Part shown: one piece after another, positions 15,637-34,142 of the stretch
How positions within the stretch are numbered: position 1 is the stretch's first letter
Layout: the number at the start of each line of letters is the position of its first letter
Assembly (NCBI RefSeq): GCF_900091415.1
Contig: NZ_FMHU01000002.1
Span: 1,178,001 to 1,242,000 of the forward strand
DNA length: 64,000 nt
Origin: Micromonospora inyonensis
Lineage (GTDB): Bacteria > Actinomycetota > Actinomycetes > Mycobacteriales > Micromonosporaceae
Direction: 5' to 3'
Notes under the pieces: model-generated
Seen by the model: the letters and a program-made list of their open reading frames with translations, nothing else
Told to the model about the DNA's origin: nothing
Databases searched by the model: none
Made by a program: the position numbers and the translations under genes

Positions 15637-16494
15637 ATGACCGCCACCGCGGCTGCGGCGCCGATCGACGTATATGAGCGCCTGACCAGCGCTCGGCTTT
15701 CGCCTGCGCAGCGACGGATCGCACGCTATGTGATCGACCACCGTGATGCGGCGGCGTTCCTCACCAGCGAGAGCATCGCGCGGCAGGTCGGCGTCAGCCA
15801 GCCTTCGGTCTCGCGGTTCGCGGCCGCGCTCGGTTACGCCAGGTTCTCGGACTTCAAGCGAGCGCTCCAGAAGTGGGCACGCTCCGAGATGTCGGCACTT
15901 CCGCCCGCAGGCGAGAGCACGAGTCCTCTGGCCGAGGCGATCGGGACCGAGGTGGCCAACCTTCAGTGGCTCGGCCAGTCCGCCACCCTCGAAGAACAGA
16001 TCTCTCGGGTCGGGGCCGCCCTCATGTCCTCGCAACGACTGCCGGTCATCGGGCTGCGCATCTCGCGTTCGTTCGCCCAGCACTTCGCCTACCTCGGTGG
16101 CAAGGTGCACCCGCACATCTCGGTGATCGACCGCGGCGACACGGAGGCCAAGGAGAGCCTTGCTCGTGCTGCGGCGGAGGGGGGCACCTGGTGCCTGGCG
16201 TTCATTCTTCCGCGCTACCCGAGGGAGGCCTGTGACCTGGTGCGTTACGCGAGACAGATCGGGCTCAAGGCCGCGGTTCTGAGCGACGAGTCGTTTGCGA
16301 CAGTCGGGCACGAGACCGATGAGCTCATCACCGTCAGGTTCGGGAGTGGGTTGCTCTTCGACACGGCCGCAGCGATGAACATCGCCTCGTCCGCGCTCCT
16401 TCACGCCATGGCCGATTCCAACCCCGGAGCCTCCCAGGACGGTCTCGAGCGCTTCGAACGACACGCCACCGACCTCGTGGTCTTCGAGGAGTGA
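15637..16494 (+). CDS. RpiR/MurR-family transcriptional regulator
   Basis: A 285-aa regulator with an N-terminal RpiR helix-turn-helix (AQRRIARYVIDHRDAAAF..., SIARQVGVSQPSVSRFAAAL, about residues 20-70) and a C-terminal SIS domain (about 120-260), which usually binds a phosphosugar or related metabolite. ATG 15637 is preferred to ATG 15628 because the AGGAG site touches the first ATG but is 9 bp from the second. RpiR regulators also control hut-type amino-acid catabolism in some actinobacteria, and its place at the head of the hut-like island makes it the best candidate regulator there. It converges on the CurA-like reductase gene. Confidence 0.9.
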   Translation: MTATAAAAPIDVYERLTSARLSPAQRRIARYVIDHRDAAAFLTSESIARQVGVSQPSVSRFAAALGYARFSDFKRALQKWARSEMSALPPAGESTSPLAEAIGTEVANLQWLGQSATLEEQISRVGAALMSSQRLPVIGLRISRSFAQHFAYLGGKVHPHISVIDRGDTEAKESLARAAAEGGTWCLAFILPRYPREACDLVRYARQIGLKAAVLSDESFATVGHETDELITVRFGSGLLFDTAAAMNIASSALLHAMADSNPGASQDGLERFERHATDLVVFEE

Positions 16495-16515
16495 GCGAGG
16501 CCGTCGTCCAGCGCA

Positions 16516-17574
16516 TCACGGCACGGGCGGTGCGGAGCGCGTGGGGTCGTCGGCGACCCTGACGATGAGCTTCCCGAAATTCTTTCCCTTCAGAAGGCCG
16601 AAGAAGGCTTCGGGGGCGTTCTCGATCCCGTCGACGAAGTCCTCCCGATACCTGATCCGACCGTTCGAAAGCCACGCCGCCATGTCGCGCTGGAAGGCGG
16701 AGTAGTGGGTCGAGATGAAGTCCCGCTGGGTGAAGCCACGGACGACGAGTCGCTTGATGTTGATCGCGCTCATCAACTGCGGGAGCCGGTCGGGTCCAGG
16801 CGGCGCGGACGCCTCGTTGTACTGCGAGATCAGACCGCAGACGGGCACCCGTGCGAAATCGTTGAGGTGATCGAAGACGGCGTCCCACACAGCGCCGCCG
16901 ACATTCTCGAAGTAGATGTCGATCCCGTCCGGAACGGCCTCGCTCAGCTCGTTCTTGAAGGTGGGTGAACGGTGGTCGAGCGCGACGTCGAATCCCAGCT
17001 CGCGCAGCCACGCCACCTTGCTGGCGCCGCCCGCGATGCCGACGGTCCGCGCCCCCTGGATCTTGGCGATCTGGCCGACGGCGGACCCCACGGCCCCCGT
17101 GGCGGCCGCCACCACGAGCGTCTCGCCCGCGACGACGCGCCCGATCTCGGTGAGCCCGACGTAGGCGGCGAAACCGGGCATGCCGAGCACCCCGAGCGCG
17201 GTTGAGATAGGCGCCTTGGCCGGGTCGACCCTGCGCAGGTGCTCACTGTCCTGTACGGCATGGGTCTGCCAGCCGGAGTGCGCGAGGACGATGTCGCCGG
17301 GGCTGAAGGAGGGCGACGCCGACTCGAGGACCTCGCAGACGGTACCGCCCTCCATCACCTCGCCGACCTCCACCGGCTTGGCGTAGGAGCGCGATGCGTT
17401 CATCCGGCCACGCATGTACGGGTCGAGCGAGAGGTAGATCGTCCGCAGCAGCACCTGGCCGTTGCCGATGGCCGGGAGCTCGCGCGTCTCGAGACGAAGG
17501 TTCGAGCGGACGGCCTCACCGACGGGTCGGGAGGCGAGGACGACGGCACGGGACTGGGTCACACGGGGCACCAT
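16516..17574 (-). CDS. CurA/LTB4DH-type NADP-dependent ene-reductase
   Basis: Zinc-free medium-chain reductase (352 aa) that reduces activated C=C bonds with NADPH. Family marks: LSLDPYMRGRMN (about residues 45-56), the Rossmann glycine stretch AAATGAVGSAVGQIAK (about 150-165), YFENVGG (about 225) and a C-terminal NFGKLIVRV. ATG 17574 gives the normal length and N terminus; the longer in-frame upstream extension is not family-like. It is divergent from hutH across a 200-bp promoter region with a conserved element, so a role on an unsaturated acid made by HutH (a urocanate-like compound) is possible. That link is inference; these reductases are broad in substrate. Confidence 0.9.
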   Translation of the reverse strand: MVPRVTQSRAVVLASRPVGEAVRSNLRLETRELPAIGNGQVLLRTIYLSLDPYMRGRMNASRSYAKPVEVGEVMEGGTVCEVLESASPSFSPGDIVLAHSGWQTHAVQDSEHLRRVDPAKAPISTALGVLGMPGFAAYVGLTEIGRVVAGETLVVAAATGAVGSAVGQIAKIQGARTVGIAGGASKVAWLRELGFDVALDHRSPTFKNELSEAVPDGIDIYFENVGGAVWDAVFDHLNDFARVPVCGLISQYNEASAPPGPDRLPQLMSAINIKRLVVRGFTQRDFISTHYSAFQRDMAAWLSNGRIRYREDFVDGIENAPEAFFGLLKGKNFGKLIVRVADDPTRSAPPVP

Positions 17575-17583
17575 AACTGGAGG

Positions 17584-17616
17584 TTGCCCCCACTGCATAG
17601 AGCGGGATACGGTGCC
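17584..17616 (+). promoter_or_regulatory. conserved island element, copy 1 (upstream of hutH)
   Basis: TTGCC, 4 bp, then the 24-bp block CTGCATAGAGCG/GGATACGGTGCC. It matches 19 of 24 positions of the copy upstream of the ABC-importer gene at 19.9 kb. It lies between hutH and the divergent reductase. Probably a shared operator or promoter. Confidence 0.65.
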
Positions 17617-17774
17617 CCGGCCAGATGAATGCTTTTCTACAGCCAGGGGCAAGGTCCTCGCTCGACGTCGAGGGCGCCAGCCGCTGGGCGACCGGTCGCT
17701 GCCGTCGCCCCCGTCGCTGGGTCGACCATCGGATGCGAGCCTCAAGAGATCAGCTAACAGGAGGATTGATCATC

Positions 17775-19304
17775 GTGAGCACCATCACGATCACCGGCGA
17801 GCATGTGAGCCTCGAGACGCTTCGTCCTGTCTTCCGGGGCCCTGTCCAGGTGGCGCTCGCCCCGCAGGCAGTGGAGAACCTGCGACGCGCGAACCAGGTG
17901 ATTCTGGACGCGATCAGCCGGGCAGACGTGGTCTACGGGGTGAACACCGGCTTCGGGAAGCTGGCGGACCGACGGATCTCGCCGTCCGACCTCGTGGAGC
18001 TGCAACGCCGGTCGGTGCTGTCGCACATGGTCGGGGTGGGTGACCCGCTTCCCGACGACACGGTCCGCGCCATCATGGTCATCAAGCTCATCGGTCTTGC
18101 GCGCGGGCACTCCGGAATCCGCGTCGAGACCGCGGAGATGCTCGTGAACATGATCAACGCGGACGTGCTGCCGGTCATCCCCACGCAGGGCTCCGTCGGG
18201 GCCTCGGGAGACCTGGCGCCGCTGGCGCACCTCGCCGGCGCACTCATGGGAGAGGGCAGCGTTCGGATCGGCGGCGTCACGTACAACGCCGCAGAGGGTC
18301 TCGCGAAGGCGGGCATGGCTCCCGTCGAACTGGGCCCCAAGGAGGCGGTGGCCCTCCTGAACGGAGTCCAGGCATCCACCGCCATCGCCCTGCGCGGGCT
18401 GTTCGGCGCCGAGGCCGTGTTCAACGCCGGCCTGGCCGCCGGTGCGCTGACGCTGGAGGCGACGGCGGGCCGACAGGTCGCTCTCGACGACCGCATCCAG
18501 CAGATCCGCGGGCACGCTGGCCAGATTCGGGTCGCCGGCCTCCTGCGGCGCCTGGTCGCCGACAGCGCGGTCCTCGACGTGGAGTTCGAGGGACGTCGGC
18601 TCCAGGACCCCTACTGCCTGCGCTGCCAGCCCCAGGTCATGGGGGCAGCGCTGGATCTCCTGACGTTCGCCGCGCACACGATCCAGCAGGAAGTCAACGC
18701 GGTCTCCGACAACCCGCTGATGTTCCCCGACGACGATGTCGTCCTGTCGGGCGGGAACTTCCATGGCCAGCCCATCGCTTACGCGGCGGACATCATCGCC
18801 ATGGCGGTCTGTGAGATCGGGTCGATCTCCGAACGCCGCCAGGCAATGCTCATGGATGCCTCCATGAGCGGGCTGGCGCCGTTCCTGGTTGGCAACGCCG
18901 GCCTGAACTCAGGGTTCATCATGGCCCAGGTCACCAGTGCCGCGCTCGTCGCGGAGAACCGCGCCAAGGCGACTCCGAACAGCGTCGACAGCATTCCGAC
19001 CTCCGCCGGCCAAGAGGACCACGTCAGCATGGCGACGCATGCTTCCGTGCGCCTTGGACCCATGGTCCGCAACGCGGCGTACGTCGTCGCGATCGAGCTG
19101 CTGTGTGCTGCCCAGGGCCTGGACCTGAGGAACGGCGGGACCGCAGCGCCGGCGAATCGCCCCACCTACGACCTTGTCCGTTCCAAGGCCGAGTTCCTCG
19201 AGGACGACCGGATCATGGCGGGTGAGATGGAGGCCGTCGCCGCGGAAGTCCTCGACGGGGTGTTCACCGGGATCGTCGGTGGTGCGCTGGAGGGTATCGC
19301 CTGA
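17775..19304 (+). CDS. hutH: histidine ammonia-lyase (HAL-type MIO lyase)
   Basis: Removes ammonia from histidine (or a close relative) to give urocanate. The MIO-forming Ala-Ser-Gly is in GSVGASGDLAPL (about residue 142). The substrate-selectivity pair is Ser-His in SVLSHMVGVG, the histidine-type signature rather than the Phe or Tyr lyase type. YGVNTGFGKL and the C-terminal QEDHVSM with its Glu are also present. Length 509 aa is normal. GTG 17775 is chosen because AGGAGG lies 10 bp upstream. A strong terminator follows. The gene is monocistronic and shares an upstream 24-bp element with the ABC importer. No urocanase is present in the window to use its product. Confidence 0.92.
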   Translation: MSTITITGEHVSLETLRPVFRGPVQVALAPQAVENLRRANQVILDAISRADVVYGVNTGFGKLADRRISPSDLVELQRRSVLSHMVGVGDPLPDDTVRAIMVIKLIGLARGHSGIRVETAEMLVNMINADVLPVIPTQGSVGASGDLAPLAHLAGALMGEGSVRIGGVTYNAAEGLAKAGMAPVELGPKEAVALLNGVQASTAIALRGLFGAEAVFNAGLAAGALTLEATAGRQVALDDRIQQIRGHAGQIRVAGLLRRLVADSAVLDVEFEGRRLQDPYCLRCQPQVMGAALDLLTFAAHTIQQEVNAVSDNPLMFPDDDVVLSGGNFHGQPIAYAADIIAMAVCEIGSISERRQAMLMDASMSGLAPFLVGNAGLNSGFIMAQVTSAALVAENRAKATPNSVDSIPTSAGQEDHVSMATHASVRLGPMVRNAAYVVAIELLCAAQGLDLRNGGTAAPANRPTYDLVRSKAEFLEDDRIMAGEMEAVAAEVLDGVFTGIVGGALEGIA

Positions 19305-19346
19305 CCGACGGCTCTCCGCTCCTGCCGCATGACGTGTGTATTGCCA

Positions 19347-19373
19347 GGGGGTGGGCACAACGCGCCCACCCCC
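19347..19373 (+). terminator. strong terminator after hutH
   Basis: GGGGGTGGGC, loop ACAACGC, GCCCACCCCC: perfect 10-bp stem 42 bp past the hutH stop, followed by TTCACGTCCTTTTT. Confidence 0.85.
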
Positions 19374-19877
19374 TTCACGTCCTTTTTGAGCGATGCTCCT
19401 GGGCCCTGGTCGCCCTCGGCCAGCCCAACGCGCCTCTCCACGACCCACCTGCGGGGGAGAGGCAGAACCGGGATGAGGTCGATGCTGTCGATTCGACCCG
19501 TCACCGGCCCGGCGAAGCTCGTCGTGGATTGCGTCGCGTGTCTCGTTCTTGCGCCCCGCCGTGAACCAGCGATCCGCCGCATTCTGCGGTGCAGTATTGC
19601 GCGGAATTCGCCGCCGAGGGAATCGGCCGGACGCACATAGGGCTCGAGTCGGCCCACATCGCGTCGGTCGCTTGCGAGAGACTTGGCGGGCATCGTCCCC
19701 GCCGTGCCCGGATGACACCCATCGCACAACCTGACGGGATGATCCCGTTTGTCGAGCATCTCGCATCGACACGTTCCACCGTTACGCCATGCGCGCGATC
19801 CGCTACCCAACGAACGCCCGAAGGGCGCCTTGAAGGCGGTTGTGTTACGTCTCCGATACGTCCTCAGATCGCATGCG
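19374..19877. other. 500-bp stretch without a recognisable gene
   Basis: Several overlapping open frames exist but none has family features or a convincing start. One plus-strand frame (about 19590-19700, YCAEFAAEGIGRTHIGLES) has coding-like composition and could be a relic of a lost gene. Nothing can be named. Confidence 0.4.
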
Positions 19878-19886
19878 GGAGGGGGG

Positions 19887-19918
19887 TTGCCGTGCTGCAT
19901 GGAAGGGGATACCGTTCC
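19887..19918 (+). promoter_or_regulatory. conserved island element, copy 2 (upstream of ABC importer)
   Basis: TTGCC, 3 bp, then CTGCATGGAAGG/GGATACCGTTCC, 56 bp before the binding-protein ATG. It matches the hutH copy at 19 of 24 positions, and weaker similarity continues downstream (CCAG...TGAAT...CTTT). Candidate site of the RpiR protein or a common promoter. Confidence 0.65.
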
Positions 19919-19974
19919 GCCAGCACTGAATGAATTCTTTCACGTTGAGTCTCGAGTCCCCCAAGGAGCCAACG

Positions 19975-20910
19975 ATGCCGAGAAGCCGTGTAGTGACCGC
20001 CACCCTCTCCCTCCTTGCCGCCACCGCGATCCTCGTGAGCGGATGCGGGACGGAGGCCGACACGTCGAAGGACAGCGCTCTGCTCGTCCCGGAACTGAAT
20101 GAACTGCTGCCGCAGAAGGTGCGCGACGCGGGCGTCTTCACCGTGGCCACCGATCCGCAGTACCCGCCGTGCGACTTCACCAACGACTCCGGGAAGATCG
20201 ATGGCTTCAACCACGACATCCTGATGGCGATGGCGCCGCGACTCGGCGTCGAAATCCGCCAGGAGGCCATCGCCTTCGACGGCCTGCTTCCCGGAGTTCA
20301 GAGCGGTCGGTTCGATGCCGCGATGGAGTGCATCACGGACAACGTGGAGCGCCAGAAGACGGTGAAGTTCGTCGACTACGCCTACGCCACCAAGAGTGTC
20401 ATCACGACCTCCGAGAACAAGCGCGGCATCACGGAGAATCCCCTGACCGCGTGTGGGTTGAAGGCAGGCGTCCAGACCGGCACCGAGTTCGTCCAGGACG
20501 CGGAGCTGTTCTCGAAGAACTGCGAGTCGGAGGGCAAGGCTCCGCTGCAGATCACCAACTTCCCGACCGCCGGCGACCAGAACACCGCACTGCAGTCCGG
20601 CCGGATCGACTTCGCCTTCACCAACACCGCGACCGGGGTGTGGCAGGCAAAGGCCAGCAACGGCCAATTCAAGATCATTCCGAGTCCGCTCCTGTCGCGC
20701 ACCTACGTCGGCATCGTGGTGGGCCTTCAGTCCGACGACACCGCCAAGGCCCTGCTCGGCGCACTCGAGGCGATCATCAAGGACGGCACCTACGACAAGA
20801 TCATGGCGGAGTGGGACCTCAAGGACATCGCGTTGGACAAGCCCGGCATCAACCTGGCGACCGAGCGTCCCCTCGACGTGCCGAAGGTCTGCGGGTCGTG
20901 CGGCTCCTGA
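19975..20910 (+). CDS. amino-acid ABC importer, substrate-binding lipoprotein
   Basis: Family 3 periplasmic-type binding protein (311 aa) anchored as a lipoprotein: basic N terminus, hydrophobic stretch and lipobox LVSGC at about residue 22. Domain features: VATDPQYPPCDF (about 58-69), IDGFNHDILMAMAPRLGVE, FDGLLPGVQSGRFDAAMECI and FVDYAYATKS. ATG 19975 has AAGGAG 6 bp upstream; the longer frame upstream is leader. It is separated from its permease gene by 311 bp with a strong hairpin, which could give a higher protein level for the binding protein. The expected ligand is a polar amino acid; the neighbourhood points to histidine or a relative. Confidence 0.9.
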   Translation: MPRSRVVTATLSLLAATAILVSGCGTEADTSKDSALLVPELNELLPQKVRDAGVFTVATDPQYPPCDFTNDSGKIDGFNHDILMAMAPRLGVEIRQEAIAFDGLLPGVQSGRFDAAMECITDNVERQKTVKFVDYAYATKSVITTSENKRGITENPLTACGLKAGVQTGTEFVQDAELFSKNCESEGKAPLQITNFPTAGDQNTALQSGRIDFAFTNTATGVWQAKASNGQFKIIPSPLLSRTYVGIVVGLQSDDTAKALLGALEAIIKDGTYDKIMAEWDLKDIALDKPGINLATERPLDVPKVCGSCGS

Positions 20911-21040
20911 CCTAGGGAACGCGCCGATATCAGCGTCGACGTCACCCCGGCGGGCCGCGTCGAGAATGGCCTCGATCAGCTCGTCGCCCCGAGCTTCTCG
21001 ACAACCGCAAGGGGCATCGCCACGGTATCGAGAGCCGCCA

Positions 21041-21080
21041 GGGTTCGGTGCGGAACGGACATCCACACCGCACCGAACCC
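21041..21080 (+). terminator. 13-bp hairpin between binding-protein and permease genes
   Basis: GGGTTCGGTGCGG (21041-21053) and CCGCACCGAACCC (21068-21080) pair perfectly around a 14-nt loop. There is no T run, so it is more likely an attenuator or 3'-stabilising structure than a full stop. Nothing else recognisable lies in 20911-21221. Confidence 0.7.
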
Positions 21081-21221
21081 TGCGGTTCGGACCGACTCGA
21101 GCGCGCAAGCCCGGCCATCCACGCTGACCGCCTGTCGTGAGCACACGAGGAGCGTCGGCCTCGGACATCAACCAGGCCTCTCGGATCACCGCCAGCGAGA
21201 AACAAGAGAAGGTGCAACGTC

Positions 21222-22870: not shown

Positions 22871-22876
22871 GAGGTC

Positions 22877-23650: not shown

Positions 23651-23853
23651 CCTTCACCGCGAGTGACGGCCACGTTCGACGGCGGAGGACCGCACCGCCG
23701 ATGCCTCCTGACAAGCCCGATATGCCGGTGAGGACGTGTGTCCTCCGACAGAAACGACGTTGACAGAACCTATGTCCAGTACAGCCTTCCATCACCACAT
23801 CGCTATCGACCGACGGCGACCTACGACGCGCGTCGACGCAAGGAGTGGTCGCC

Positions 23854-25065
23854 GTGTCGGTTCGTGACAGATTGGCGGAGATCAGCCCGATCGGCCGGGA
23901 CAACGTCCGCGGTGGCTATTCGCGTCACCTGCTGGACCCGGCGGAGATGGTGCTTCGCGGCTGGTTCGAAAGCTCAGCAGAGGCACTGGGTCTCTCCGTC
24001 GAGGTGGACGGGAACGGGAACCTGTGGGCGTGGTGGGGTGAGTCCCGACGGGGAGCCGTCGCGACCGGCAGCCACCTGGACTCCGTGCCCGGCGGAGGTG
24101 CCTTGGACGGACCTCTCGGGGTGGTGAGCGCACTCGAGGCGGTCGCGATCCTCAAGGCCGAAGGCTGGCGTCCCACACGGCCGATCGCCGTGTGCGCGTT
24201 CGCGGAGGAAGAAGGATCCCGCTTCGGCATGCCCTGCCTGGGCTCTCGGCTGATGGTCGGGGAGATCACGCCGGAGGACACGCTCGCCCGGGTCGACCGC
24301 GATGGCGTCACCCTCGAAGAGGCCTGGCGGCAGGCGGGCCTGGAGGTCTCCACCATCGGCCCGGACCCGGACCGACTCGCCGGCATCGACATGTTCCTCG
24401 AACTTCATGTCGAGCAGGGCCTCGACCTGGAGAACCGCGGTCTCCCCCTCGCGGTGGGTTCGGCCATCATGGCGCACGGCAGGTGGCGGCTCTCGATCCT
24501 CGGGGAGGGTAACCATGCCGGGACCACGCCGATGCAGGGACGCCGCGATCCGGTGGTCGCGGTCTCGTCGGCCGCTCTGGCGGTCCGCGAGATCGCCATG
24601 GAGCGACCGGCCGCTCGTGGCACCGTCGGCCGCATCTCGGTCACCCCGAACGGCACGAACGTCATCGCCTCGCGTGTCGACGCCTGGCTCGACATCCGGG
24701 CGCATTCGGACTCGGAGGTGCGCGCGCAGTTGGACGCCACGGTTGCGCTCATCCAGAAGCGGGTCGCGGCCGAGGGCTGCGCTCTCCAGGTCCACGAGGA
24801 GTCGTTCTCGCCGTTGGTCCTGTTCGACGAGCCGCTCACGGCGAGGATCGCCGGCGTTCTCGGCGGTGTGCCGGCGATACCGACAGGCGCCGGCCACGAC
24901 GCAGGCGTCCTCTCCGCGTACGTCCCATCCGCGATGATCTTCGTCCGGAATCCGACCGGCATCTCGCACGCCCCGGAGGAGACCGCCCGCGAGGAGGACT
25001 GCGAGGCCGGAGCGCACGGGCTTGCCGACGTTCTCCGAGACCTCGCCGGCGGGGCCTCCCGATGA
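23854..25065 (+). CDS. AllC/HyuC-type M20 hydrolase, likely alternative N-formylglutamate deformylase
   Basis: Zinc-dependent amidohydrolase (403 aa) related to allantoate amidohydrolase and N-carbamoyl-amino-acid hydrolase. Metal-site blocks are present: GSHLDSVPGGGALDG (about residues 71-85), FAEEEGSRFG, ELHVEQGLDLE and GAGHDAGVLS. In actinobacterial hut clusters such proteins are thought to replace HutG, splitting N-formyl-L-glutamate to formate and glutamate; adjacency to hutF, which makes formylglutamate, supports this. GTG 23854 is preferred to GTG 23845 because AAGGAG is 8 bp before the former and overlaps the latter. It overlaps hutF by four bases. Confidence 0.88.
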   Translation: MSVRDRLAEISPIGRDNVRGGYSRHLLDPAEMVLRGWFESSAEALGLSVEVDGNGNLWAWWGESRRGAVATGSHLDSVPGGGALDGPLGVVSALEAVAILKAEGWRPTRPIAVCAFAEEEGSRFGMPCLGSRLMVGEITPEDTLARVDRDGVTLEEAWRQAGLEVSTIGPDPDRLAGIDMFLELHVEQGLDLENRGLPLAVGSAIMAHGRWRLSILGEGNHAGTTPMQGRRDPVVAVSSAALAVREIAMERPAARGTVGRISVTPNGTNVIASRVDAWLDIRAHSDSEVRAQLDATVALIQKRVAAEGCALQVHEESFSPLVLFDEPLTARIAGVLGGVPAIPTGAGHDAGVLSAYVPSAMIFVRNPTGISHAPEETAREEDCEAGAHGLADVLRDLAGGASR

Positions 25066-26348
25066 GCGGCGAACGGCAGCGCTTCCACTGCGAGGCCGCG
25101 CTCGTGGAGGGACGCCTGGCCGAGAGGGTGCGGGTGGAGGCGGTGGACGGCGTCGTCGTCGAGCTCGTCGTGGGCGTACCGCCGCGGCCCGACGATGTCG
25201 TGCTCGGAACGGTCGTGCCGGGATTCGCGAATGCCCACTCCCATGCGTTCCATCGAGAGCTGCGCGGTTGTACGCACGCCGACGGAGGTGACTTCTGGCA
25301 GTGGCGGCACCGGATGTACGAGGTCGCCAACCGCCTGACCCCGGACAGCTACCACGTCGTCGCGGAACGGGTCTTCACGGAGATGCGCGACGCGGGTTAC
25401 ACGGCAGTCGGTGAGTTTCACTACCTGCACCACCAGCCCGGCGGAACGCCGTACGGCGGTCACGAGATGGAGCTGGCGCTGGTGGCGGCGGCGACCTCCG
25501 CCGGCATCCGGCTGGTACTCCTGGACACCTGCTACCTGTCGGGTGGCGTCAACGAGCCACTGGGCGCGGAGCAGCAGCGGTTCGGCGACGGGGACGCCCA
25601 TCGGTGGTTGGACCGCTGGCATCGTCTGCGCGACGCGCTGTCCGGACGAGGTGACGGGCTCGTCACCCTGGGTGCCGCCATCCACTCGGTCCGAGCCGTG
25701 TCGCGATACGACCTCTCCGTGATCGCCGACAGCCTCCCACAGAACGTGCCGCTGCACGCCCACGTCTCCGAGCAGCCTGCGGAGAACCGGGCATGCCTCG
25801 AGGCGCACGGCCTGACGCCGGTCGGGCTGCTCGCGGATCACGGGCTGGTGTCGTCGCGTTTCTCCGCCGTTCACGCGACGCACCTGACCACCGGCGACAT
25901 CGACCTGCTCGGAGACGCCGGCGCGACGATCGTGATGTGTCCCACGACCGAAGCCGATCTCGGCGACGGGATCGGCCCCGCCCCCGAGCTCCAGGGCGCG
26001 GGGGCACGCCTCGCCATCGGTTCGGACCAGCACGTGGTGATCGATCCGCTCGAGGAACTCAGCCGCTTGGAGCTCGACCAGCGCCTGCGGCTGCAACGGC
26101 GTGGGGTCTTCCCGCCGGACATGCTCTGGGCGGCGGGCACCGCCGGGGGGTACGGATCCCTCGGCCTGTCACGGAACCCTGGATCTCCCCCGGGACTGCG
26201 CGTGGGCGAGCACTGGGACGCGGTCGAGATCGACACGACGTCGGCGAGACTTCGAGGAGTCGACCCTTGGCAGATGCCACTCGCGGCACGTGCCTGCGAT
26301 GTGCGGGCGACCATCGTCGCCGGTCGGCTGACACGTCCCGGTCGCTGA
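25062..26348 (+). CDS. hutF: formimidoylglutamate deiminase
   Basis: Amidohydrolase-superfamily enzyme (428 aa) that converts N-formimino-L-glutamate to N-formyl-L-glutamate and ammonia. Metal and catalytic blocks are in order: FANAHSHAFHR (HxH, about residues 55-65), HAHVSEQPAEN (about 232), VHATHLT (about 268) and GSDQHVVIDPLEELS (about 320). All expected ligands are present, so it should be active. It is translationally coupled (ATGA) to the upstream M20 hydrolase, making a two-step module from formiminoglutamate to glutamate. An inverted-repeat region ends the transcript, facing hutD. Confidence 0.93.
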   Translation: MSGERQRFHCEAALVEGRLAERVRVEAVDGVVVELVVGVPPRPDDVVLGTVVPGFANAHSHAFHRELRGCTHADGGDFWQWRHRMYEVANRLTPDSYHVVAERVFTEMRDAGYTAVGEFHYLHHQPGGTPYGGHEMELALVAAATSAGIRLVLLDTCYLSGGVNEPLGAEQQRFGDGDAHRWLDRWHRLRDALSGRGDGLVTLGAAIHSVRAVSRYDLSVIADSLPQNVPLHAHVSEQPAENRACLEAHGLTPVGLLADHGLVSSRFSAVHATHLTTGDIDLLGDAGATIVMCPTTEADLGDGIGPAPELQGAGARLAIGSDQHVVIDPLEELSRLELDQRLRLQRRGVFPPDMLWAAGTAGGYGSLGLSRNPGSPPGLRVGEHWDAVEIDTTSARLRGVDPWQMPLAARACDVRATIVAGRLTRPGR

Positions 26349-26488: not shown

Positions 26489-26492
26489 GAGG

Positions 26493-27116
26493 TCACCGAA
26501 CCGCGAGCCACCGCCGAACCCCTAGCCCGTCGAGTGCGGCCGACGGTCGCCAGACGTCGAACCTGCTGGTCCCACGGCCAGCGGTCAGGGCGATCACGAC
26601 GGCGGCCGTCGGGAACTCCCGCCATGGGGACCGGCAGGGTAGGAGTTCAGCCGGGTCGGGGTCGTCGACCTTGACCATGAGGTTGACGGCACGGCACGGC
26701 GTCGCCAGTCGGAGCAGCGTCGTCTCGGAGTCGCCGGCGAACGAGAACGGTGTGTCAGCGGCGATGCGGTGGGTCTCACCGTCCACCCGCAGCTCGACGG
26801 CCTTGTCCACCGGAACGAAGGTGCGCGTGACCCCCGGTAGGCGGGAGAACGGGCCTGGTCCGGTCAGGTCGGCGATGCTCAGTCGCCAGGCCGGCCGGCC
26901 GGGGGTCAGCCCCCGGCTCTCGTGGTAGGACACCACTTCGCGGGTGACACCTGCACCCGTCGCCCACGGGGTCGGCCGAAGCTGGCAGAAGCGGCGCAAC
27001 GGTGCGGGCACCCCGCCGTCACCGGGGGGCCCGCCCGTTGGGGCGTCTCCGGTCCCCTGACCGAGATCCCCGTCGACGTGACTGGCTCCGTGGCCAGCCG
27101 TCGAGTTCCGCGTCAC
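26493..27116 (-). CDS. hutD: HutD-family protein
   Basis: HutD proteins (cupin-like bicupin fold) accompany hut genes and modulate pathway flux; their biochemistry is not settled. This 207-aa version has the family core PWATGAGVTREVVSY, then WRLSIADLTGPGPFSRLPGV, TRTFVPVDK and a DTPFSFAGD segment. The first 40 residues are a Gly/Ala/Pro-rich extension with no family match, so a later start is possible. GTG 27116 overlaps the stop of the upstream hydrolase (GTGA), so it is translated in a BVMO-hydrolase-hutD operon, an unusual setting. Confidence 0.88.
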   Translation of the reverse strand: MTRNSTAGHGASHVDGDLGQGTGDAPTGGPPGDGGVPAPLRRFCQLRPTPWATGAGVTREVVSYHESRGLTPGRPAWRLSIADLTGPGPFSRLPGVTRTFVPVDKAVELRVDGETHRIAADTPFSFAGDSETTLLRLATPCRAVNLMVKVDDPDPAELLPCRSPWREFPTAAVVIALTAGRGTSRFDVWRPSAALDGLGVRRWLAVR

Positions 27117-27997: not shown

Positions 27998-28050
27998 GTC
28001 GGTGTCTCCTGCCGAGTGCACAGTGCCAAGGGTCATCAGGGATCTGGTGT

Positions 28051-30036
28051 CTAGTCGAGGAAATCGTGGTCCGACTCGACGACCGACTCGGTGATGTCCC
28101 AGTACTCCACATTGGTGTAGGGCCAGATCTGGGACACCCGTCCGTGCCGGTTCTGATACCACGTGCTCACGTACGGCTGACCCCAGGCCATCCTCCGGTT
28201 GCCCTGGTCGACCCAGGCGACGAAGCGGTCGAGCGCTTCCCTGCGTACGTCGATCGCGGCCGCCCCCCGGCGAAGAACCTCGTGGATCGCTTTGAGCGAG
28301 TACTCGACCGCGCGCTCCAGCATGAAGTGCAGGCTGCCCGCGACGACGCCACCCACGTTGGGGCCGTAGATCAGGAAGAAGTTGGGGAACCCCGGGACCA
28401 TGACGCCGTTGTGGGCGCGTGCGTCACCGTCCCAGAAGTCGTGGATTTCCACACCGTTCCGTCCCAGGACCTCGACCTCGTCGAGATAGTCGGACGGCTT
28501 GAAGCCCGTCGCGTACACGACGACGTCCACCTCGTGCAGGAGACCGTCGTTGTCGACGATGCCGTCCTCGGTGAACCGCGCGATTCCGGAAGTCACGAGC
28601 GTCGTCTTCTCGGCGAGCAGCGCGGAGGCCCACACCTCGTTGTCCCGCAGCATGCGCTTCGCACCCGGTGGGTACGTGGGGACGACGTGCTGGAGGATTT
28701 CCGGGGCGTCCCGGAACTGGGCCTCCAGTCGGGCGACCAGGTACTCCCGCAGCTCCTGGTTCTTGGCCGAGACGCTGAGCGGCGCACCGGGCCAGTCCGC
28801 TTCCGCGGTGACGGTATGGGTCCGTCCGGGGATGCCCGTGAGGATCACCCAGAGGCGGTACCACTGCGCGTAGTGCGGAACCTTTCGCACGAGCCAGCTG
28901 AACGCGTCCGTCATCGGGTGGTGGTAGTTCGGTGCCGGCAGCATCCACGGCGCACTGCGCTGGAAGACGGTGAGAGCGTCCACATCCCCGACGATGGCCG
29001 GCACGATCTGGTAGGCGCTCGCACCGGTGCCGATGACGGCAACCCGCTTGCCCTTCAGGTCGACTGCGTGATCCCACTCCTGCGAGTGCATCGTCGTCCC
29101 ACGGAACAGGCTCTGGCCTTCGAACTCCGGGATGTTCGGCCTGTCGAGCTGGCCCAACGCGCTGACCACCGCCGCGAACCGGCGGACCTGCTCGCTGCCG
29201 TTCGGCCCACGGGTGGTCGCCTCCCAGACCCTGCCGTCGTCGTCCCAGCGCAGGCGAAGCAGTCTGGTCGAGAACTCGATCCGGTCGGTGATCAGGGCCC
29301 GCTCGGCCACGTCGCGAAGGTAGTCGAGGATCTCGCCGCCCCGCGCGAACTGGTGCGGCCAATCCCCACGCTGCGCGAACGAGTAGGAGTATCCGAAGGT
29401 GGGAGTGTCGAGACGGACGCCGGGATAGGTGTTCTTCGCCCACGTACCTCCCACGGACCCGTTGGCCTCGATCAGCGTGAACGGCACTTCCGCCTGGGCG
29501 AACCGGTGGGCGGCGGCGATCCCCGCGACACCTGCGCCGATGATGAGGGTGGGGAACGATCGTCCCTGCGCGACCTCTCCGAACGTCCAGGACGGCCGGC
29601 CGCCCTTGTCGGTTGCGAGGTCGAGCTCGTGGGTCAGCATCCGATACCACTCCTCTCGACCGCCGCTGAGGTAGTGGAAGATCTCCCGGACCGTCTCGTC
29701 CGGCAGCACGTCGACCGTGGTGATCTGCTTCTCGCGCAGGACGGTCAGTGCGGAGAAGGCGACGGCAGCAGCCTTCTCCTTCTGACTCTCCGACATCCCC
29801 CCGTGCGGATGCGGCTGCGTGTCCATCGGCGTCAGAGGTGGTTGGAGGTCCGTGTGCAGGATCGACGTGTCGCCGAGAGCTGCCGCCAGCGCAGCGAGCA
29901 GGACGGGCAGCTCCGAGCCGGCCGACACCTGCCTGAGGAACTCGTCGTCCTCGACGATCGCTTCGGACTGGGAGACCGGGTAGAGGTCGTCGAACCGATG
30001 GATCTCGTCAGCATCAGGTTCGGGAGTCGGTGTCAT
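28051..30036 (-). CDS. Baeyer-Villiger monooxygenase, HAPMO-like
   Basis: Flavin monooxygenase (661 aa) that inserts oxygen next to a carbonyl using NADPH and O2. FAD motif TLIIGAGVAGIAAA (about residues 148-161), BVMO fingerprint FRGTTMHSQEW (about 294-304), NADPH motif VAVIGTGASAYQIVP and YATGFKPSDY. The N-terminal extension of about 140 residues (AALAAALGDTSILHTDL, LTPMDT) resembles 4-hydroxyacetophenone monooxygenase. ATG 30036 is chosen; the in-frame extension to 30126 would run through the promoter. It heads a BVMO-hydrolase-hutD operon. BVMOs are not part of known histidine degradation, so its presence is a strong hint of a different or extended substrate. Confidence 0.93.
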   Translation of the reverse strand: MTPTPEPDADEIHRFDDLYPVSQSEAIVEDDEFLRQVSAGSELPVLLAALAAALGDTSILHTDLQPPLTPMDTQPHPHGGMSESQKEKAAAVAFSALTVLREKQITTVDVLPDETVREIFHYLSGGREEWYRMLTHELDLATDKGGRPSWTFGEVAQGRSFPTLIIGAGVAGIAAAHRFAQAEVPFTLIEANGSVGGTWAKNTYPGVRLDTPTFGYSYSFAQRGDWPHQFARGGEILDYLRDVAERALITDRIEFSTRLLRLRWDDDGRVWEATTRGPNGSEQVRRFAAVVSALGQLDRPNIPEFEGQSLFRGTTMHSQEWDHAVDLKGKRVAVIGTGASAYQIVPAIVGDVDALTVFQRSAPWMLPAPNYHHPMTDAFSWLVRKVPHYAQWYRLWVILTGIPGRTHTVTAEADWPGAPLSVSAKNQELREYLVARLEAQFRDAPEILQHVVPTYPPGAKRMLRDNEVWASALLAEKTTLVTSGIARFTEDGIVDNDGLLHEVDVVVYATGFKPSDYLDEVEVLGRNGVEIHDFWDGDARAHNGVMVPGFPNFFLIYGPNVGGVVAGSLHFMLERAVEYSLKAIHEVLRRGAAAIDVRREALDRFVAWVDQGNRRMAWGQPYVSTWYQNRHGRVSQIWPYTNVEYWDITESVVESDHDFLD

Positions 30037-30249
30037 TCGGGTTGCTACCCCCCTCGTCTGTGGGTCTGGCGAGCGGACGCCAGCGCCGGCTGCGCAGTGT
30101 CGGAGCTGGGCTTTTCCCGCTCGCATAATACTATGCTAGCGACGCGATCTCGCATAGAGTTGTGCCGGGCCCGGGTTGACGGCCGGCCGCGACGCCGGCC
30201 GCACCGCGGCCGACGCGGATCCGTCCCCCACGAGAGCGAGGAAGATCAA
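30037..30249. promoter_or_regulatory. divergent promoter region between BVMO and SnoaL operons
   Basis: Contains an AT-rich patch in otherwise GC-rich DNA with a dyad GCATA-ATAC-TATGC (30123-30136). CGCATA repeats at 30151-30156, 29 bp from the first copy. The patch likely holds -10 elements and an operator for both directions. Confidence 0.55.
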
Positions 30250-30651
30250 GTGAGCGTTTCGGCTGACGTCGTCAAGGCATGGCTGGAGGAGTTCGGGCGG
30301 GTATGGCGCGAAGGCGACGTGGAGGGGGCGGCGGCCATCATGACCGAGGACGCCAGCTACCGGAACAGTCCCTTCCTGGAGCAGCCGTACGTCGGTCACG
30401 ACGCCATCGCGGGGTTCTGGGAGGCCGCGCTCGTCGGCGTCTCCGATGTCGACTTCCGCTACGGAACGCCGGTGATCGAGGGTGACCGGGTGGGTGTCGA
30501 ATGGTGGTGCAACCTCCGCTCGGGCGGGGAGGACTACACCCTGGCGGGCAACTTCCTGCTGACCTTCGCCGGGGAGAGGGTTGCCGACCTGCGCGAGTCG
30601 TTCGTCAAGCAGAAGGGTGCTCTTGCGCCGCACGCTGGCTGGGGTCTCTGA
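30250..30651 (+). CDS. SnoaL-like (NTF2 fold) protein
   Basis: A 133-aa NTF2-fold protein: AWLEEFGRVWREGDVEGAAA, the EDASYRNSPF segment and YVGHDAIAGFW are typical of SnoaL-like proteins acting as isomerases, hydratases or small-molecule binders. GTG 30250 follows a GAGGAAG site; frame upstream of it is non-coding. It is the first gene of an operon with the DAO oxidase, hutI and SDR, divergent from the BVMO. The precise reaction cannot be told from sequence. Confidence 0.8.
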   Translation: MSVSADVVKAWLEEFGRVWREGDVEGAAAIMTEDASYRNSPFLEQPYVGHDAIAGFWEAALVGVSDVDFRYGTPVIEGDRVGVEWWCNLRSGGEDYTLAGNFLLTFAGERVADLRESFVKQKGALAPHAGWGL

Positions 30652-30704
30652 GGCTCCGCCGCCAACGATCGTCCAGCGCCGCGTCGAGCCAGATGTGAGG
30701 GAGC

Positions 30705-32009
30705 ATGGGTACCGAGGTAGAGAACCGCGCTGACGTGCTGATCATCGGGGCGGGGGTGATCGGCGCCAGTGCCGCCTTCGCGCTGGCCAAGGCGGGCCAC
30801 GACGTGCTCGTGGTCGATCGCAACCGCGGGGTCGGAGACGGTTCGACCGGGTCGTCGGCAGGCATCATCCGCGTCCACGCGAGCGACGCGCAGAGCTCGG
30901 CGCTCGCTGCCGACGCCCTGGCGGTCTGGAACAACTGGCGTGACTTCCTCGGGGCCGACAGCACCGAGGAGGTCACGCGTTTCGTACGGTGCGGCTCGCT
31001 GATCCTCGATGCCGGGAACGGGTTCGTCGACCGAGCCGCAGCGGCGATGAGGGCCGCCGAGGTCTCGTTCGAGGAGTGGTCGCTGGACGAGATGAGCGAT
31101 CACTTCCCGTACTTCGACTTCCACCGGTTCGGACCGCCCCGGCCGGTGGACGACGACGAGTTCTGGTCGGATCCGACAGAGTTGCTGCCTGGCGCTCTCT
31201 ACACCCCGCAGTCGGGGTACGTCGGTGACCCGACCCTCGCGGCAGTCAATCTGATGCACGCGGCCCAGCGAGAAGGTGCCCGCCTGCGGCGTTCGGCCAC
31301 CGTCGCGCGGATCGATCTCGAGGGCGCCCGCGCCGTGGGAGCAACGCTGGCCGATGGGAGCAGGTTGCGAGCGGACGCGGTTCTCGTCGCCGCCGGCCCG
31401 CACAGCGATTCACTTGTCAGTGCAATCGGCGGAACCTCCGACTTCCGGGTCCGAACCCGGCGGATCCGGGAGGAACTGCTCCACGTGCCTGCGCCTGCGG
31501 GGCTGGACCTCGCGCTGCAAGGGGTACACCTCGTGGACGGCGACCTCAACATCAACTTCCGTCCGGAGCTGGGCAACGCGTTCCTCGGTGGCAGTAACGG
31601 TGATCTCGTCGAGGAGCAGACGGTCGTCGAGGACCCCGACGAGTTCGACCCGCTGACGACGGCCGACGTCTGGGAACGCACGACTCTGCGGCTGGCCCGG
31701 CGCGTCCCGGCACTGGGCATCCCGCGTGCGCGAACCGGCGTCGTCGGGCTGTACGACGCGGCGGAGGACTGGCTGCCAATCTACGACCGGACCTGCTTCG
31801 ACGGGCTGTTCGTCGCGATGGCGACCTCCGGCACACAGTTCAAGACGGCGCCGATCGTGGGTGAGCTACTTCGCCATGTCGTCGAGACAGCGCTGGACGG
31901 CCGCGACCACACCGCGGAACCCTTCGTCGCTCCCACCAGCGGGCGCAGCTATTCGACCGCGCAGTTCTCCCGGCTGCGTGATCCGCACAAGGGCCAGCTT
32001 CGGGGATGA
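30705..32009 (+). CDS. DAO-family FAD oxidoreductase
   Basis: A 434-aa FAD enzyme of the D-amino-acid oxidase/sarcosine oxidase beta family. FAD motif VLIIGAGVIGASAAFALAKA (about residues 11-30), ribose-binding Asp in VVDRN, GSSAGIIR and the C-terminal GLFVAMATSGTQFKTAP. Such enzymes oxidise C-N bonds of secondary or primary amines (N-demethylation or deamination). It is placed 13 bp before hutI, so it should act in the same pathway, perhaps removing an N-substituent from the side chain or ring. ATG 30705 has GAGGGAG upstream. Confidence 0.88.
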   Translation: MGTEVENRADVLIIGAGVIGASAAFALAKAGHDVLVVDRNRGVGDGSTGSSAGIIRVHASDAQSSALAADALAVWNNWRDFLGADSTEEVTRFVRCGSLILDAGNGFVDRAAAAMRAAEVSFEEWSLDEMSDHFPYFDFHRFGPPRPVDDDEFWSDPTELLPGALYTPQSGYVGDPTLAAVNLMHAAQREGARLRRSATVARIDLEGARAVGATLADGSRLRADAVLVAAGPHSDSLVSAIGGTSDFRVRTRRIREELLHVPAPAGLDLALQGVHLVDGDLNINFRPELGNAFLGGSNGDLVEEQTVVEDPDEFDPLTTADVWERTTLRLARRVPALGIPRARTGVVGLYDAAEDWLPIYDRTCFDGLFVAMATSGTQFKTAPIVGELLRHVVETALDGRDHTAEPFVAPTSGRSYSTAQFSRLRDPHKGQLRG

Positions 32010-32022
32010 GGGGCCGGCGAGC

Positions 32023-33270
32023 ATGTGGGACGACCAGAGGCACCAGGACGTGAACGAGCCACCGGAAGCCGTCGTCATCGACGGCATCGCAGAGTTGACC
32101 ACGAACGACGAGGCCAACGGCGGGCGGATCCGTGACGCGGCGCTGGTCGTCGAAGGAGATCGGATCGCGTGGGTCGGGCCGTCCCGTGCGGCGCCCCCCG
32201 CCGACCGGAGGGTGGACCTGGCCGGCCGGGCCGTGCTCCCGGGCTGGGTCGATTCCCACACCCACATGGTCTTCGCCGGGGACCGCACTGCGGAGTTCGA
32301 GGCGAGGATGGCCGGCGAGCCGTACGCGGCGGGCGGTATCAACGTGACGGTCCAGGCCACGCGGGCGGCGAGCGAGGCGGATCTCGAGGCGAACATCGAG
32401 CGGCTCGTAGCGGAGGCGCGCCGTGGCGGGACGACGACGATCGAGACGAAGACCGGGTACGGCCTGACCCTGACCGACGAGGTACGGGCAGCTCGCCTGG
32501 CCGGTCGGTACGTGGACGCGGTGACGTTCCTCGGCGCCCACGTCGTGCCTGCGGGCGCCGACCCGGACGAGTACGTCGCGCTCGTCGCTGGTCCGATGCT
32601 CGACGCCGTCGCTCCCTTCGTGGCGGCGGTGGATGTCTTCTGCGAGGTCGGTGCCTTCGACGAGGCGGCGACGCGGCGGATCCTCGACGTGGCCAGGGCG
32701 CGGGGAATGGCGCGTCGCCTGCACGGCAACCAGCTCGGGCACGGGCCGGGGGCGCAGCTCGCGGTCGAGTACGGCGCCCTCAGCGTGGATCACCTCGGCT
32801 TCCTGACCGACGACGACGTCGCGGCCCTGGCCTCCTCCTGGGCGGGCGCGAGGCGAGGGACGGTCGCGACCGTTCTTCCGGCCTGCGACCTCTCCACACG
32901 GATGCCGCTCGCGCCTGCCCGACGCCTCCTGGACGCCGGCGCGGTCGTCGCGATCGCCTCGAACTGCAACCCCGGGACGTCCTTCACCACCTCGATGGCG
33001 TTCTCCGTCGCCACCGCCGTGCTGCAGATGGGTCTCACCGTGCAGGAGGCGGTCCGCGCGGCGACCTTGGGAGGGGCGATCGCGTTGGGGATGGACGAGG
33101 AGGGGTGGCTCGATCCCCGGGGCGCGGCGCAGCCGGCCGTCGGGGTGGTCGGTCCTGGCCGGCGGGCGGATTTCCAGGTGCTGGACGCCCCCTCGGTCAC
33201 CCACCTCGCCTACCGTCCCGGCGTCCCGCTCACGAGCGCCGTGTGGCGGTCCGGCATCCGCGAGGTCTGA
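32023..33270 (+). CDS. hutI: imidazolonepropionase-like amidohydrolase with altered metal site
   Basis: HutI opens 4-imidazolone-5-propionate to N-formimino-L-glutamate. This 415-aa protein has the HxH pair in DSHTHMVFAGDR (about residues 75-86), TKTGYGLTL, HGNQLGHGPG, DHLGFLTD and SNCNPGTSFTTSM. In canonical HutI the last block reads (S/T)D.NPG, and that Asp binds the metal and activates water (Asp324 in B. subtilis); here the codon is AAC, Asn. The other family blocks are preserved, including LAYRPGVPLTSAVWRSG at the end. ATG 32023 gives the family start. It may act on a modified substrate or be weakly active. Confidence 0.85.
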   Translation: MWDDQRHQDVNEPPEAVVIDGIAELTTNDEANGGRIRDAALVVEGDRIAWVGPSRAAPPADRRVDLAGRAVLPGWVDSHTHMVFAGDRTAEFEARMAGEPYAAGGINVTVQATRAASEADLEANIERLVAEARRGGTTTIETKTGYGLTLTDEVRAARLAGRYVDAVTFLGAHVVPAGADPDEYVALVAGPMLDAVAPFVAAVDVFCEVGAFDEAATRRILDVARARGMARRLHGNQLGHGPGAQLAVEYGALSVDHLGFLTDDDVAALASSWAGARRGTVATVLPACDLSTRMPLAPARRLLDAGAVVAIASNCNPGTSFTTSMAFSVATAVLQMGLTVQEAVRAATLGGAIALGMDEEGWLDPRGAAQPAVGVVGPGRRADFQVLDAPSVTHLAYRPGVPLTSAVWRSGIREV

Positions 33271-33365
33271 CGTCCCGCCCGCCGAGACACTTCTGCTCCC
33301 GCCTGCGGCCCATCGCCGTCGCGGGGGCCACCGAACATCCACACCCCACTCTGATCGGAGACATC

Positions 33366-34142
33366 ATGACTTCAACGATCGCCGGCCGGACGGTCCTCAT
33401 CACCGGCGCGGCCGAACGCGCGGGCCGCGTGTTCGCGCGCAGGTTCGCAGCGGCCGGGGCGGCCGTGGTGGTGAACCACTGGAAGCAGGCGGAGCTCGCC
33501 GAGGAGACCGTCGAGCTCATCCGCTCCGCGGGCGGTGAGGCGATCGCCGTGGAGGCGGACGTGTCGAACACCGCGGACGCCCGTCGGCTCGTGGACCAGG
33601 CGGCGGCCTGGCGCGGCGACGTCTCCGTGCTGATCCACAATGCGAGCTCACTTCGCGCGAAGGAGTTCGAGGACGTGACCGAGGACGACTTCGATGCCTC
33701 GTTCGGGATCAACATCCGGGGACCGTTCTTCCTCAGCCAGGCCGCGGCGGCAGTCATGAAGAAGCAGGGGCACGGCAGGATCATCGCGCTGGTGGGCAAC
33801 TCGACCAACGAGGCATGGCCGAACCTCATCCCGCATGGCCTGTCCAAGACGGCCCTGATCAGGCTCATGGAGCAGCTCGCCGTCGCCCTGTCTCCGACGG
33901 TGCAGTGCAACGCGGTGGCACCCACCCAGTTCTTCCGCTCGGACGACGGCACCAACGACGCGCTGCGTCGTTATCGCGGCGAACCGCTCGTCGACGGCGA
34001 CACCTACCGGGTCGGGACGCGGTACGAGTTCCGCAACGGGGATGCGGACGACGTCGCGGAGACGTTGCTCTTCCTCTCGACGTGCTCGCCCTACCTGAAC
34101 GGCACGGTCATCCGTCTCGACGGCGGGAAGGCTCTCTACTAG
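33366..34142 (+). CDS. short-chain dehydrogenase/reductase lacking the catalytic Tyr
   Basis: SDR-fold protein (258 aa). Cofactor motif TVLITGAAERAGR (about residues 8-20), a nearby basic residue pattern of pteridine-reductase-like SDRs, HNAS at about 90 and the terminal LNGTVIRLDGG. The usual YxxxK catalytic motif reads HGLSK (IPHGLSKTAL, about 157): Lys is kept, Tyr is His. A Ser is available upstream (VGNSTNEAW). It may be a divergent enzyme or non-catalytic. ATG 33366; 95 bp after hutI on the same strand, probably the last gene of that operon. Confidence 0.85.
   Translation: MTSTIAGRTVLITGAAERAGRVFARRFAAAGAAVVVNHWKQAELAEETVELIRSAGGEAIAVEADVSNTADARRLVDQAAAWRGDVSVLIHNASSLRAKEFEDVTEDDFDASFGINIRGPFFLSQAAAAVMKKQGHGRIIALVGNSTNEAWPNLIPHGLSKTALIRLMEQLAVALSPTVQCNAVAPTQFFRSDDGTNDALRRYRGEPLVDGDTYRVGTRYEFRNGDADDVAETLLFLSTCSPYLNGTVIRLDGGKALY

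What the first reader, a model, noticed from the sequence alone, without database searches (positions are those of the whole stretch)
15637..34142. Histidine-utilisation-like island without urocanase, carrying BVMO, DAO oxidase, SnoaL and ene-reductase
Seen: HutH, HutF, HutD, a HutI homologue, the HutG-alternative M20 hydrolase and an amino-acid ABC importer lie in four transcription units, interleaved with a CurA-type reductase, two alpha/beta hydrolases, a Baeyer-Villiger monooxygenase, a SnoaL-like protein, a DAO-type oxidase and an SDR. No urocanase gene or fragment is present in 64 kb. Known: hut pathways go histidine, urocanate (HutH), imidazolonepropionate (HutU), formiminoglutamate (HutI), then HutF/HutG; none of the extra enzymes is required. 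Inference: the island degrades a histidine relative (N-methylated, hydroxylated or side-chain-altered), or joins the last hut steps to a different front end in which oxidation replaces hydration.
Basis: partly seen in the sequence, partly recalled or inferred. Interest (0 to 1): 0.85.

Follow-up and report, generated by a model that had tools for sequence, protein, structure and literature searches.

The report
Histidine-type degradation island without urocanase
A soil bacterium carries a second, separately controlled set of histidine-breakdown genes that has every usual step except one and instead holds several oxidising and splitting enzymes; a distant relative carries the same set and shows no gene for the missing step, so these bacteria may break down an imidazole compound by a route not yet described.

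Summary
The gene set at 15637-34142 is real. It is a second hut-like set: the genome has a hut operon with urocanase on another contig, but there hutI is in two pieces and the RpiR regulator is short, so HutI2 of the island is the only whole HutI found. HutH2, DAO and SnoaL orthologues fall on contigs of equal length in further actinobacteria. In P. kujensis no urocanase and no second HutH or HutI was found. Promoter elements recur inside the island; the one sought at G237's hutU is absent there. HutI2 and HutF2 look like a standard tail; HutH2 is of another HutH lineage. Best reading: a mobile, RpiR-controlled catabolic island joining a urocanase-free front end to the normal hut tail. Substrate and chemistry are not shown; G237 keeps hutH-hutU near the island, which argues for overlap with ordinary histidine use.

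The parts
15390..15403 (+). GCATA-N4-TATGC site, 1 mismatch, upstream of RpiR2
15637..16494 (+). RpiR-family regulator (RpiR2)
   Evidence: PF01418 43.9 bits; 78% in P. kujensis
16516..17574 (-). CurA-type NADPH enone reductase (start chosen by eye)
   Evidence: NF058644 above cut-off
17594..17613 (+). TGCATAGAG-N3-GATACNGT promoter element between CurA and HutH2
17775..19304 (+). HutH2, histidine ammonia-lyase of a lineage distinct from the genome's other HutH (43% identity)
   Evidence: TIGR01225 above cut-off
19896..19915 (+). second TGCATAGAG-N3-GATACNGT element (2 mismatches) before the SBP gene
19975..20910 (+). ABC importer, polar amino-acid substrate-binding protein
   Evidence: PF00497
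21222..22106 (+). ABC importer permease
   Evidence: PF00528, TIGR01726
22103..22870 (+). ABC importer ATPase
   Evidence: PF00005
22877..23650 (+). alpha/beta hydrolase ABH1, PcaD-like but below its cut-off
   Evidence: TIGR02427 198 bits, cut-off 256
23854..25065 (+). M20 amidohydrolase (HutG alternative)
   Evidence: NF006770 above cut-off; 52% to the copy in the canonical operon
25062..26348 (+). HutF2, formiminoglutamate deiminase
   Evidence: NF006681 above cut-off, TIGR02022 just below; tree
26493..27116 (-). HutD (start uncertain; no match in P. kujensis stretches)
   Evidence: PF05962 71 bits
27113..27997 (-). alpha/beta hydrolase ABH2, next to BVMO
   Evidence: PF12697
28051..30036 (-). 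type I Baeyer-Villiger monooxygenase with long N-terminal part; FRGTTMHSQEWD fits the recalled motif FxGxxxHxxxW(P/D)
   Evidence: PF00743, sequence
30123..30136 (+). GCATAATACTATGC, perfect GCATA-N4-TATGC site between BVMO and SnoaL
30152..30165 (+). second GCATA-N4-TATGC site (1 mismatch), 29 bp on
30250..30651 (+). SnoaL-like protein, ketosteroid-isomerase fold
   Evidence: PF12680 58 bits; model and fold comparison
30705..32009 (+). DAO-type oxidase, proline/sarcosine/glycine oxidase fold
   Evidence: PF01266 170 bits
32023..33270 (+). HutI2, imidazolonepropionase with Asn at the position of the metal/catalytic Asp (role recalled)
   Evidence: TIGR01224 above cut-off
33366..34142 (+). short-chain dehydrogenase (pteridine-reductase/FabG-like)
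   Evidence: PF00106 119 bits

Best explanation
The region is a horizontally spread, RpiR-controlled catabolic island for an imidazole amino acid. It has its own importer, its own ammonia-lyase (HutH2) and a complete standard hut tail (HutI2, HutF2, M20 hydrolase; end products glutamate, formate and ammonia), but urocanase is replaced by an oxidation/reduction module (BVMO with esterase ABH2, CurA reductase, SDR, SnoaL, DAO). Most likely order: import; HutH2 removes ammonia to give urocanate or a substituted urocanate; a flavin monooxygenase oxygenates and CurA reduces the acrylate double bond, so that the net result equals urocanase's hydration; HutI2, HutF2 and M20 finish. Shown: the gene set, its conservation, recurring promoter elements, a host in which no urocanase was found. 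Inferred: substrate, step order, control by RpiR2, roles of SnoaL, DAO, SDR and the two hydrolases.
For: Gene families. Kept as a unit in G237 and P. kujensis, part of it in a MAG. P. kujensis: no PF01175 match, no HutU by protein search, one HutH and one HutI, both the island's. HutH2/DAO/SnoaL orthologues on contigs of equal length: 13, 10 and 7 shared lengths of at least 10 kb. Promoter elements recur in the island; one of the two was sought at G237's hutU and is absent. HutF2 and HutI2 have few island-specific changes, HutH2 is of another lineage. Precedent for imidazole ring oxygenation by a flavin monooxygenase: HinF, EC 1.14.13.5, of histamine catabolism (passages of PMC6467879).
Against: The window genome and G237 both keep a urocanase, in G237 about 5 kb from the island. 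Urocanase is missing in 20 of 62 genomes of P. kujensis' genus, so its absence there is not special. The assumed order leaves SnoaL, DAO, SDR and two hydrolases without a firm role. CurA-type reductases act on enones rather than acids (recalled). BVMO relatives elsewhere sit among genes for carbocyclic aromatics, which points to ketone oxidation, not ring oxygenation.
Confidence: 0.5

Rival explanations
1. Imidazolyl-ketone route: HutH2 makes urocanate, SnoaL hydrates it, SDR oxidises to a beta-keto acid that loses CO2 to 4-acetylimidazole, BVMO and ABH2 turn this into 4-imidazolone and acetate, HutI2, HutF2 and M20 yield glycine and formate, DAO oxidises glycine (or sarcosine, if the ring was N-methylated).
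Against: HutI2 and HutF2 show only 6 island-specific changes each, none at a presumed catalytic residue by eye, so nothing suggests a smaller substrate; leaves CurA and ABH1 unexplained.
Confidence: 0.17
2. A modified histidine (N-alkyl, side-chain or acyl form) is trimmed by DAO, BVMO and the hydrolases; the histidine-like core then goes through HutH2 and, where present, a hutU elsewhere in the genome.
For: Urocanase is present in G000 and G237; DAO resembles oxidases of secondary amines.
Against: No urocanase found in P. kujensis; the one element sought at G237's hutU is absent.
Confidence: 0.18
3. An ordinary second hut operon for histidine; the extra enzymes are accessory or unrelated.
For: All hut steps but one are present and the own canonical hutI is broken, so HutI2 may simply replace it; G237 has hutH-hutU but no other HutI.
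Against: Extra genes are kept with HutH2 across genera; HutH2 is redundant if hutH1-hutU is the histidine route; P. kujensis without urocanase.
Confidence: 0.12
4. Chance neighbours.
For: BVMO relatives occur without hut genes in 10 of 12 named loci, some of them short.
Against: 16 of 16 and 15 of 16 genes kept in two genomes, one rearranged.
Confidence: 0.03

Closest known systems
Histidine utilisation (hut), HutF branch
   Same: HutH, HutI, HutF, an amidohydrolase, HutD, an importer and a regulator; HutH, HutI, HutF (NF006681) and M20 pass NCBIfam cut-offs
   Different: no HutU; HutH of a separate lineage; seven non-hut enzymes; own promoter elements
Histamine catabolism (hin) of Pseudomonas putida U
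   Same: works alike in outline if the inference holds: a flavin monooxygenase (HinF, EC 1.14.13.5) and amidases on an imidazole compound (passages of PMC6467879)
   Different: hin starts from an amine and ends at aspartate (the end recalled; HinI is listed as aspartate ammonia-lyase); a HinF orthologue was not looked for here; the island oxygenase is a BVMO
Ergothioneine utilisation (Ert)
   Same: lyase-type start (recalled) and amidohydrolase end on an imidazole amino acid
   Different: M20 scores 282 bits against ErtE (cut-off 520) and HutI2 19.6 against ErtD (cut-off 600)
Hydroxyacetophenone-type BVMO plus esterase clusters
   Same: BVMO with adjacent alpha/beta hydrolase
   Different: the island lacks the ring-hydroxylating and ring-cleaving types of enzyme seen at L083

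Membership tests
Canonical hut pathway | HutH above family cut-off | tested here: met
   TIGR01225 603 bits, cut-off 539
Canonical hut pathway | HutU (urocanase) in the set | tested here: not met
   only match of the genome is on another contig; none in P. kujensis
Canonical hut pathway | HutI above cut-off | tested here: met
   TIGR01224 315 bits, cut-off 298; but Asn for Asp at position 314
Canonical hut pathway | HutF plus N-formylglutamate-releasing hydrolase | tested here: met
   NF006681 and NF006770 above cut-off, TIGR02022 403 bits against 413; activity not tested
Canonical hut pathway | induction by histidine or urocanate | not testable with these tools
   needs expression data
Ergothioneine utilisation (Ert) | ErtD and ErtE above cut-off | tested here: not met
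   19.6 against 600 and 281.9 against 520 bits
Histamine catabolism (hin) | HinF-type ring monooxygenase | not tested
   no HinF sequence was compared
Type I Baeyer-Villiger monooxygenase | FxGxxxHxxxW(P/D) motif (recalled) | tested here: met
   FRGTTMHSQEWD in the translation, by eye
Ketosteroid isomerase | fold | tested here: met
Ketosteroid isomerase | catalytic Asp38 and Asp99 | tested here: inconclusive
   Asn39 and Asn101 stand there by eye against a recalled KSI sequence; no residue table was computed; Asn39 is invariant, Asn101 is not
Sarcosine/glycine oxidase family | fold | tested here: met
Sarcosine/glycine oxidase family | active-site residues and substrate | not tested
   no residue comparison or assay

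The most novel reading that the evidence does not exclude
The island encodes a complete, urocanase-independent route for an imidazole amino acid, possibly histidine itself, in which a Baeyer-Villiger-type flavoenzyme with a reductase or esterase does the work of urocanase; it has spread between actinobacterial families and in P. kujensis is the only hut-like system.
Probability: 0.3. Interest if true: 0.85.

Novelty: new variant of a known kind. Interest (0 to 1): 0.6.

Why it matters
Histidine breakdown is a textbook pathway in which urocanase follows the ammonia-lyase. A conserved island that keeps both ends and swaps the middle would show a second way to open the imidazole ring, or reveal the catabolic route of a histidine derivative. 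It also warns that genomes scored hut-negative for lack of hutU may still carry such a route, and it gives a small list of proteins and one species without detectable urocanase in which to test it.

Tried and rejected
Rejected: chance neighbours. HutI2's Asn as a sign of a new reaction: the same Asn clade sits in operons with HutU in L073-L075. Absence of urocanase in P. kujensis as special: 20 of 62 genomes of its genus lack it. Pseudonocardia as the window's genus, my first guess: the genomes of P. kujensis' genus all bear other handles than those of the window's genus and family, and the nearest named proteins are Micromonospora.

Led nowhere: BVMO loci of 36-41% identity, L069-L072, 0 of 4 with hut genes; distant DAO loci, 20 fetched of 29 hits outside the own genome, some cut by contig ends, 0 of 20 with HutH, HutI, HutF, M20, HutU, BVMO or SnoaL matches; plasmid hits: DAO 2 records, one opened, no hut genes, BVMO 149 records, none opened; viral contigs, none. 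Paper searches on hut plus Baeyer-Villiger, formiminoglutamate iminohydrolase, imidazole propionate degradation, ergothioneine catabolism, acetophenone monooxygenase plus imidazole, urocanase-independent histidine degradation, P. kujensis, methylhistidine degradation, histamine/imidazoleacetate: going by titles and starts of abstracts, no listed paper describes this island; only PMC6467879 was opened (passages). The library holds open-licence papers only, so this is no proof of absence from print.

Limits of the promoter elements: they were read off the same intergenic sequences before being counted, so the shuffle figures are partly circular. With 2 mismatches GCATA-N4-TATGC is at chance level in the window (6 found, 5.67 expected) and not significant in P. 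kujensis (4 found, 1.52 expected, 7 of 100 shuffles reach it). The short core GCATAGAG occurs 4 times in the window, 2 of them outside the island. The CurA/HutH2 element is not matched in P. kujensis within 3 mismatches. L002 has one 2-mismatch GCATA-N4-TATGC site right before its own RpiR gene, at chance level; the other element was not sought in L120.

Full report
What is there. Codon-position scans and family searches confirm the set: RpiR2, CurA, HutH2, a three-gene amino-acid ABC importer, ABH1, M20, HutF2, HutD, ABH2, BVMO, SnoaL, DAO, HutI2, SDR; 16 genes in all. SnoaL is on the + strand (30250-30651). There is no urocanase in the window; the genome's single PF01175 match is at G000:C1:3009067.

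The genome already has a hut operon. Around that match lie an RpiR gene, hutU, an M20 hydrolase gene, hutF, hutI and hutH. Against the island proteins these give 43% (HutH), 52% (M20) and 51% (HutF) identity. This operon is damaged: hutI matches a canonical HutI only in two pieces, residues 1-110 (85%) and 200-396 (90%), in different frames, and its RpiR reading frame has 137 residues with only the DNA-binding domain recognised. An assembly error cannot be excluded. As read, HutI2 of the island is the only whole HutI found in the genome.

The island is a unit. In G237 all 16 genes occur in the same order at 85-96% identity (ABH2 there reads in two frames). G237's contig length, 6,945,737, equals that given for a HutH protein of Micromonospora olivasterospora, so I take G237 to be that species or a very close one, and the window genome to be a Micromonospora; this is inference. 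In Pseudonocardia kujensis 15 of 16 genes occur (60-87%; no HutD match), in a different order, with BVMO-ABH2 next to RpiR2 and CurA. A 6.5-kb MAG contig (L081) carries HutF, M20, BVMO, ABH2, SnoaL and DAO at 54-65%. Of 12 loci found with BVMO in named genomes, 2 carry hut genes within the stretch held and 10 do not. In the 160 genomes of the window's genus a DAO match at E up to 1e-60 occurs in 2, the own genome and G237; in 354 of the family, at 1e-100, in the same 2.

Wider spread. HutH2 orthologues of 76% or more are named in Micromonospora, Aeromicrobium, Nocardioides, Saccharopolyspora, Pseudonocardia, Amycolatopsis and Mycolicibacterium. Matching longest-contig lengths, as a stand-in for linkage, among contigs of at least 10 kb: HutH2 with DAO 13, HutH2 with SnoaL 10, DAO with SnoaL 7; of 30 DAO proteins of 45% or more 15 share a length with HutH2 or SnoaL, of 24 below 45% none shares one with HutH2 (rows entered: 79 of the 120 listed HutH2 hits, the self row among those left out; all 120 listed DAO hits of 153 that passed; all 27 SnoaL hits). 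Equal length is not proof of the same contig, and distance on long contigs is unknown. Of 26 HutH2 proteins of 76% or more on contigs of at least 10 kb, 14 have such a partner and 12 do not; one of the 12 is the G237 protein, which does have both partners, so the method also misses true cases.

Urocanase. All 160 held genomes of the window's genus have PF01175. P. kujensis has none, one aromatic lyase, HutH2, and one HutI, HutI2. But 20 of 62 genomes of its genus lack urocanase, so the island may simply have entered a hut-less strain; the point that stands is that the island lives in a genome without detectable urocanase. The completeness of that assembly was not given. In G237 a HutH of another type (57% to the own HutH1) and HutU lie in tandem next to the ETF genes, about 5 kb from the island's SDR gene, and no HutI other than HutI2 was found in the genome. 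So in G237, and perhaps in the window genome, HutI2 probably also serves ordinary histidine breakdown.

Control. Two promoter elements recur: TGCATAGAG-N3-GATACNGT before HutH2/CurA and before SBP (2 found, 0.09 expected), and GCATA-N4-TATGC before RpiR2 and twice, 29 bp apart, between BVMO and SnoaL (3 found with at most 1 mismatch, 0.25 expected, 0 of 100 shuffles). The pair 29 bp apart recurs in G237 and, with 2 mismatches each, in P. kujensis, and the first element before SBP in P. kujensis. In the canonical operon neither is above chance, and the second has no match in the stretch with G237's hutU. The elements were defined by eye on these same sequences, so the numbers are partly circular; weaker counts that do not stand out are told under Tried and rejected. 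That RpiR2 binds them is inference.

How it may work. The tail looks standard and the front end foreign. The economical reading is that HutH2 makes urocanate or an analogue, and an oxygenase plus an ene-reductase reach the imidazolone level without urocanase. Ring oxygenation by a flavin monooxygenase has precedent in histamine catabolism, where HinF is listed as EC 1.14.13.5 FAD-monooxygenase (passages of PMC6467879). The rival ketone route explains more of the extra genes but asks the tail to take a smaller substrate, for which the sequences give no hint. I cannot choose firmly between them.

Verdict. It is a new variant of a known kind, a hut-like system with a different middle, well supported as a unit and open in chemistry.

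Noticed in passing
L002:5942-6807 and 11135-11548 (own genome, canonical hut operon): hutI of the canonical operon is in two pieces with about 90 residues missing between them; the RpiR gene before hutU is only 137 residues long.
   Followed up: partly
HutI2 position 314; L073, L074, L075: A HutI clade with Asn in place of the metal/catalytic Asp, in G040 and G062 the only HutI match at E up to 1e-60 among the 6 candidates scored, inside operons with HutU. How such an enzyme works is unclear.
   Followed up: partly
window 34299-39170: PntA, PntB and both electron-transfer flavoprotein subunits follow the island directly and are kept in G237; PntA has no match in the P. kujensis stretch. They could supply NADPH and take electrons from DAO.
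   Followed up: partly
window 22-2793 and 5076-6524: Formate dehydrogenase-like molybdoprotein and FdhD; formate is an end product of the hut tail.
   Followed up: no
window 7722-14607: AllG-family protein, alpha/beta hydrolase, a weakly MctP-like transporter, AtzE-like amidase and a LuxR regulator left of the island; may be another small nitrogen-compound catabolic set.
   Followed up: no
L068:6845-7719 (G237): ABH2 reads in two frames; pseudogene or sequencing error.
   Followed up: no
L082-L091: BVMO relatives (52-72%) with recurring aromatic-catabolism neighbours in Arthrobacter, Citricoccus, Kocuria, Nesterenkonia and in Leucobacter and Propionibacteriaceae MAGs; two BVMO genes tail to tail in L087.
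   Followed up: partly
L073:4352-4669 (G142): Only a fragment of HutH (about residues 343-450) is matched between M20 and HutU.
   Followed up: no
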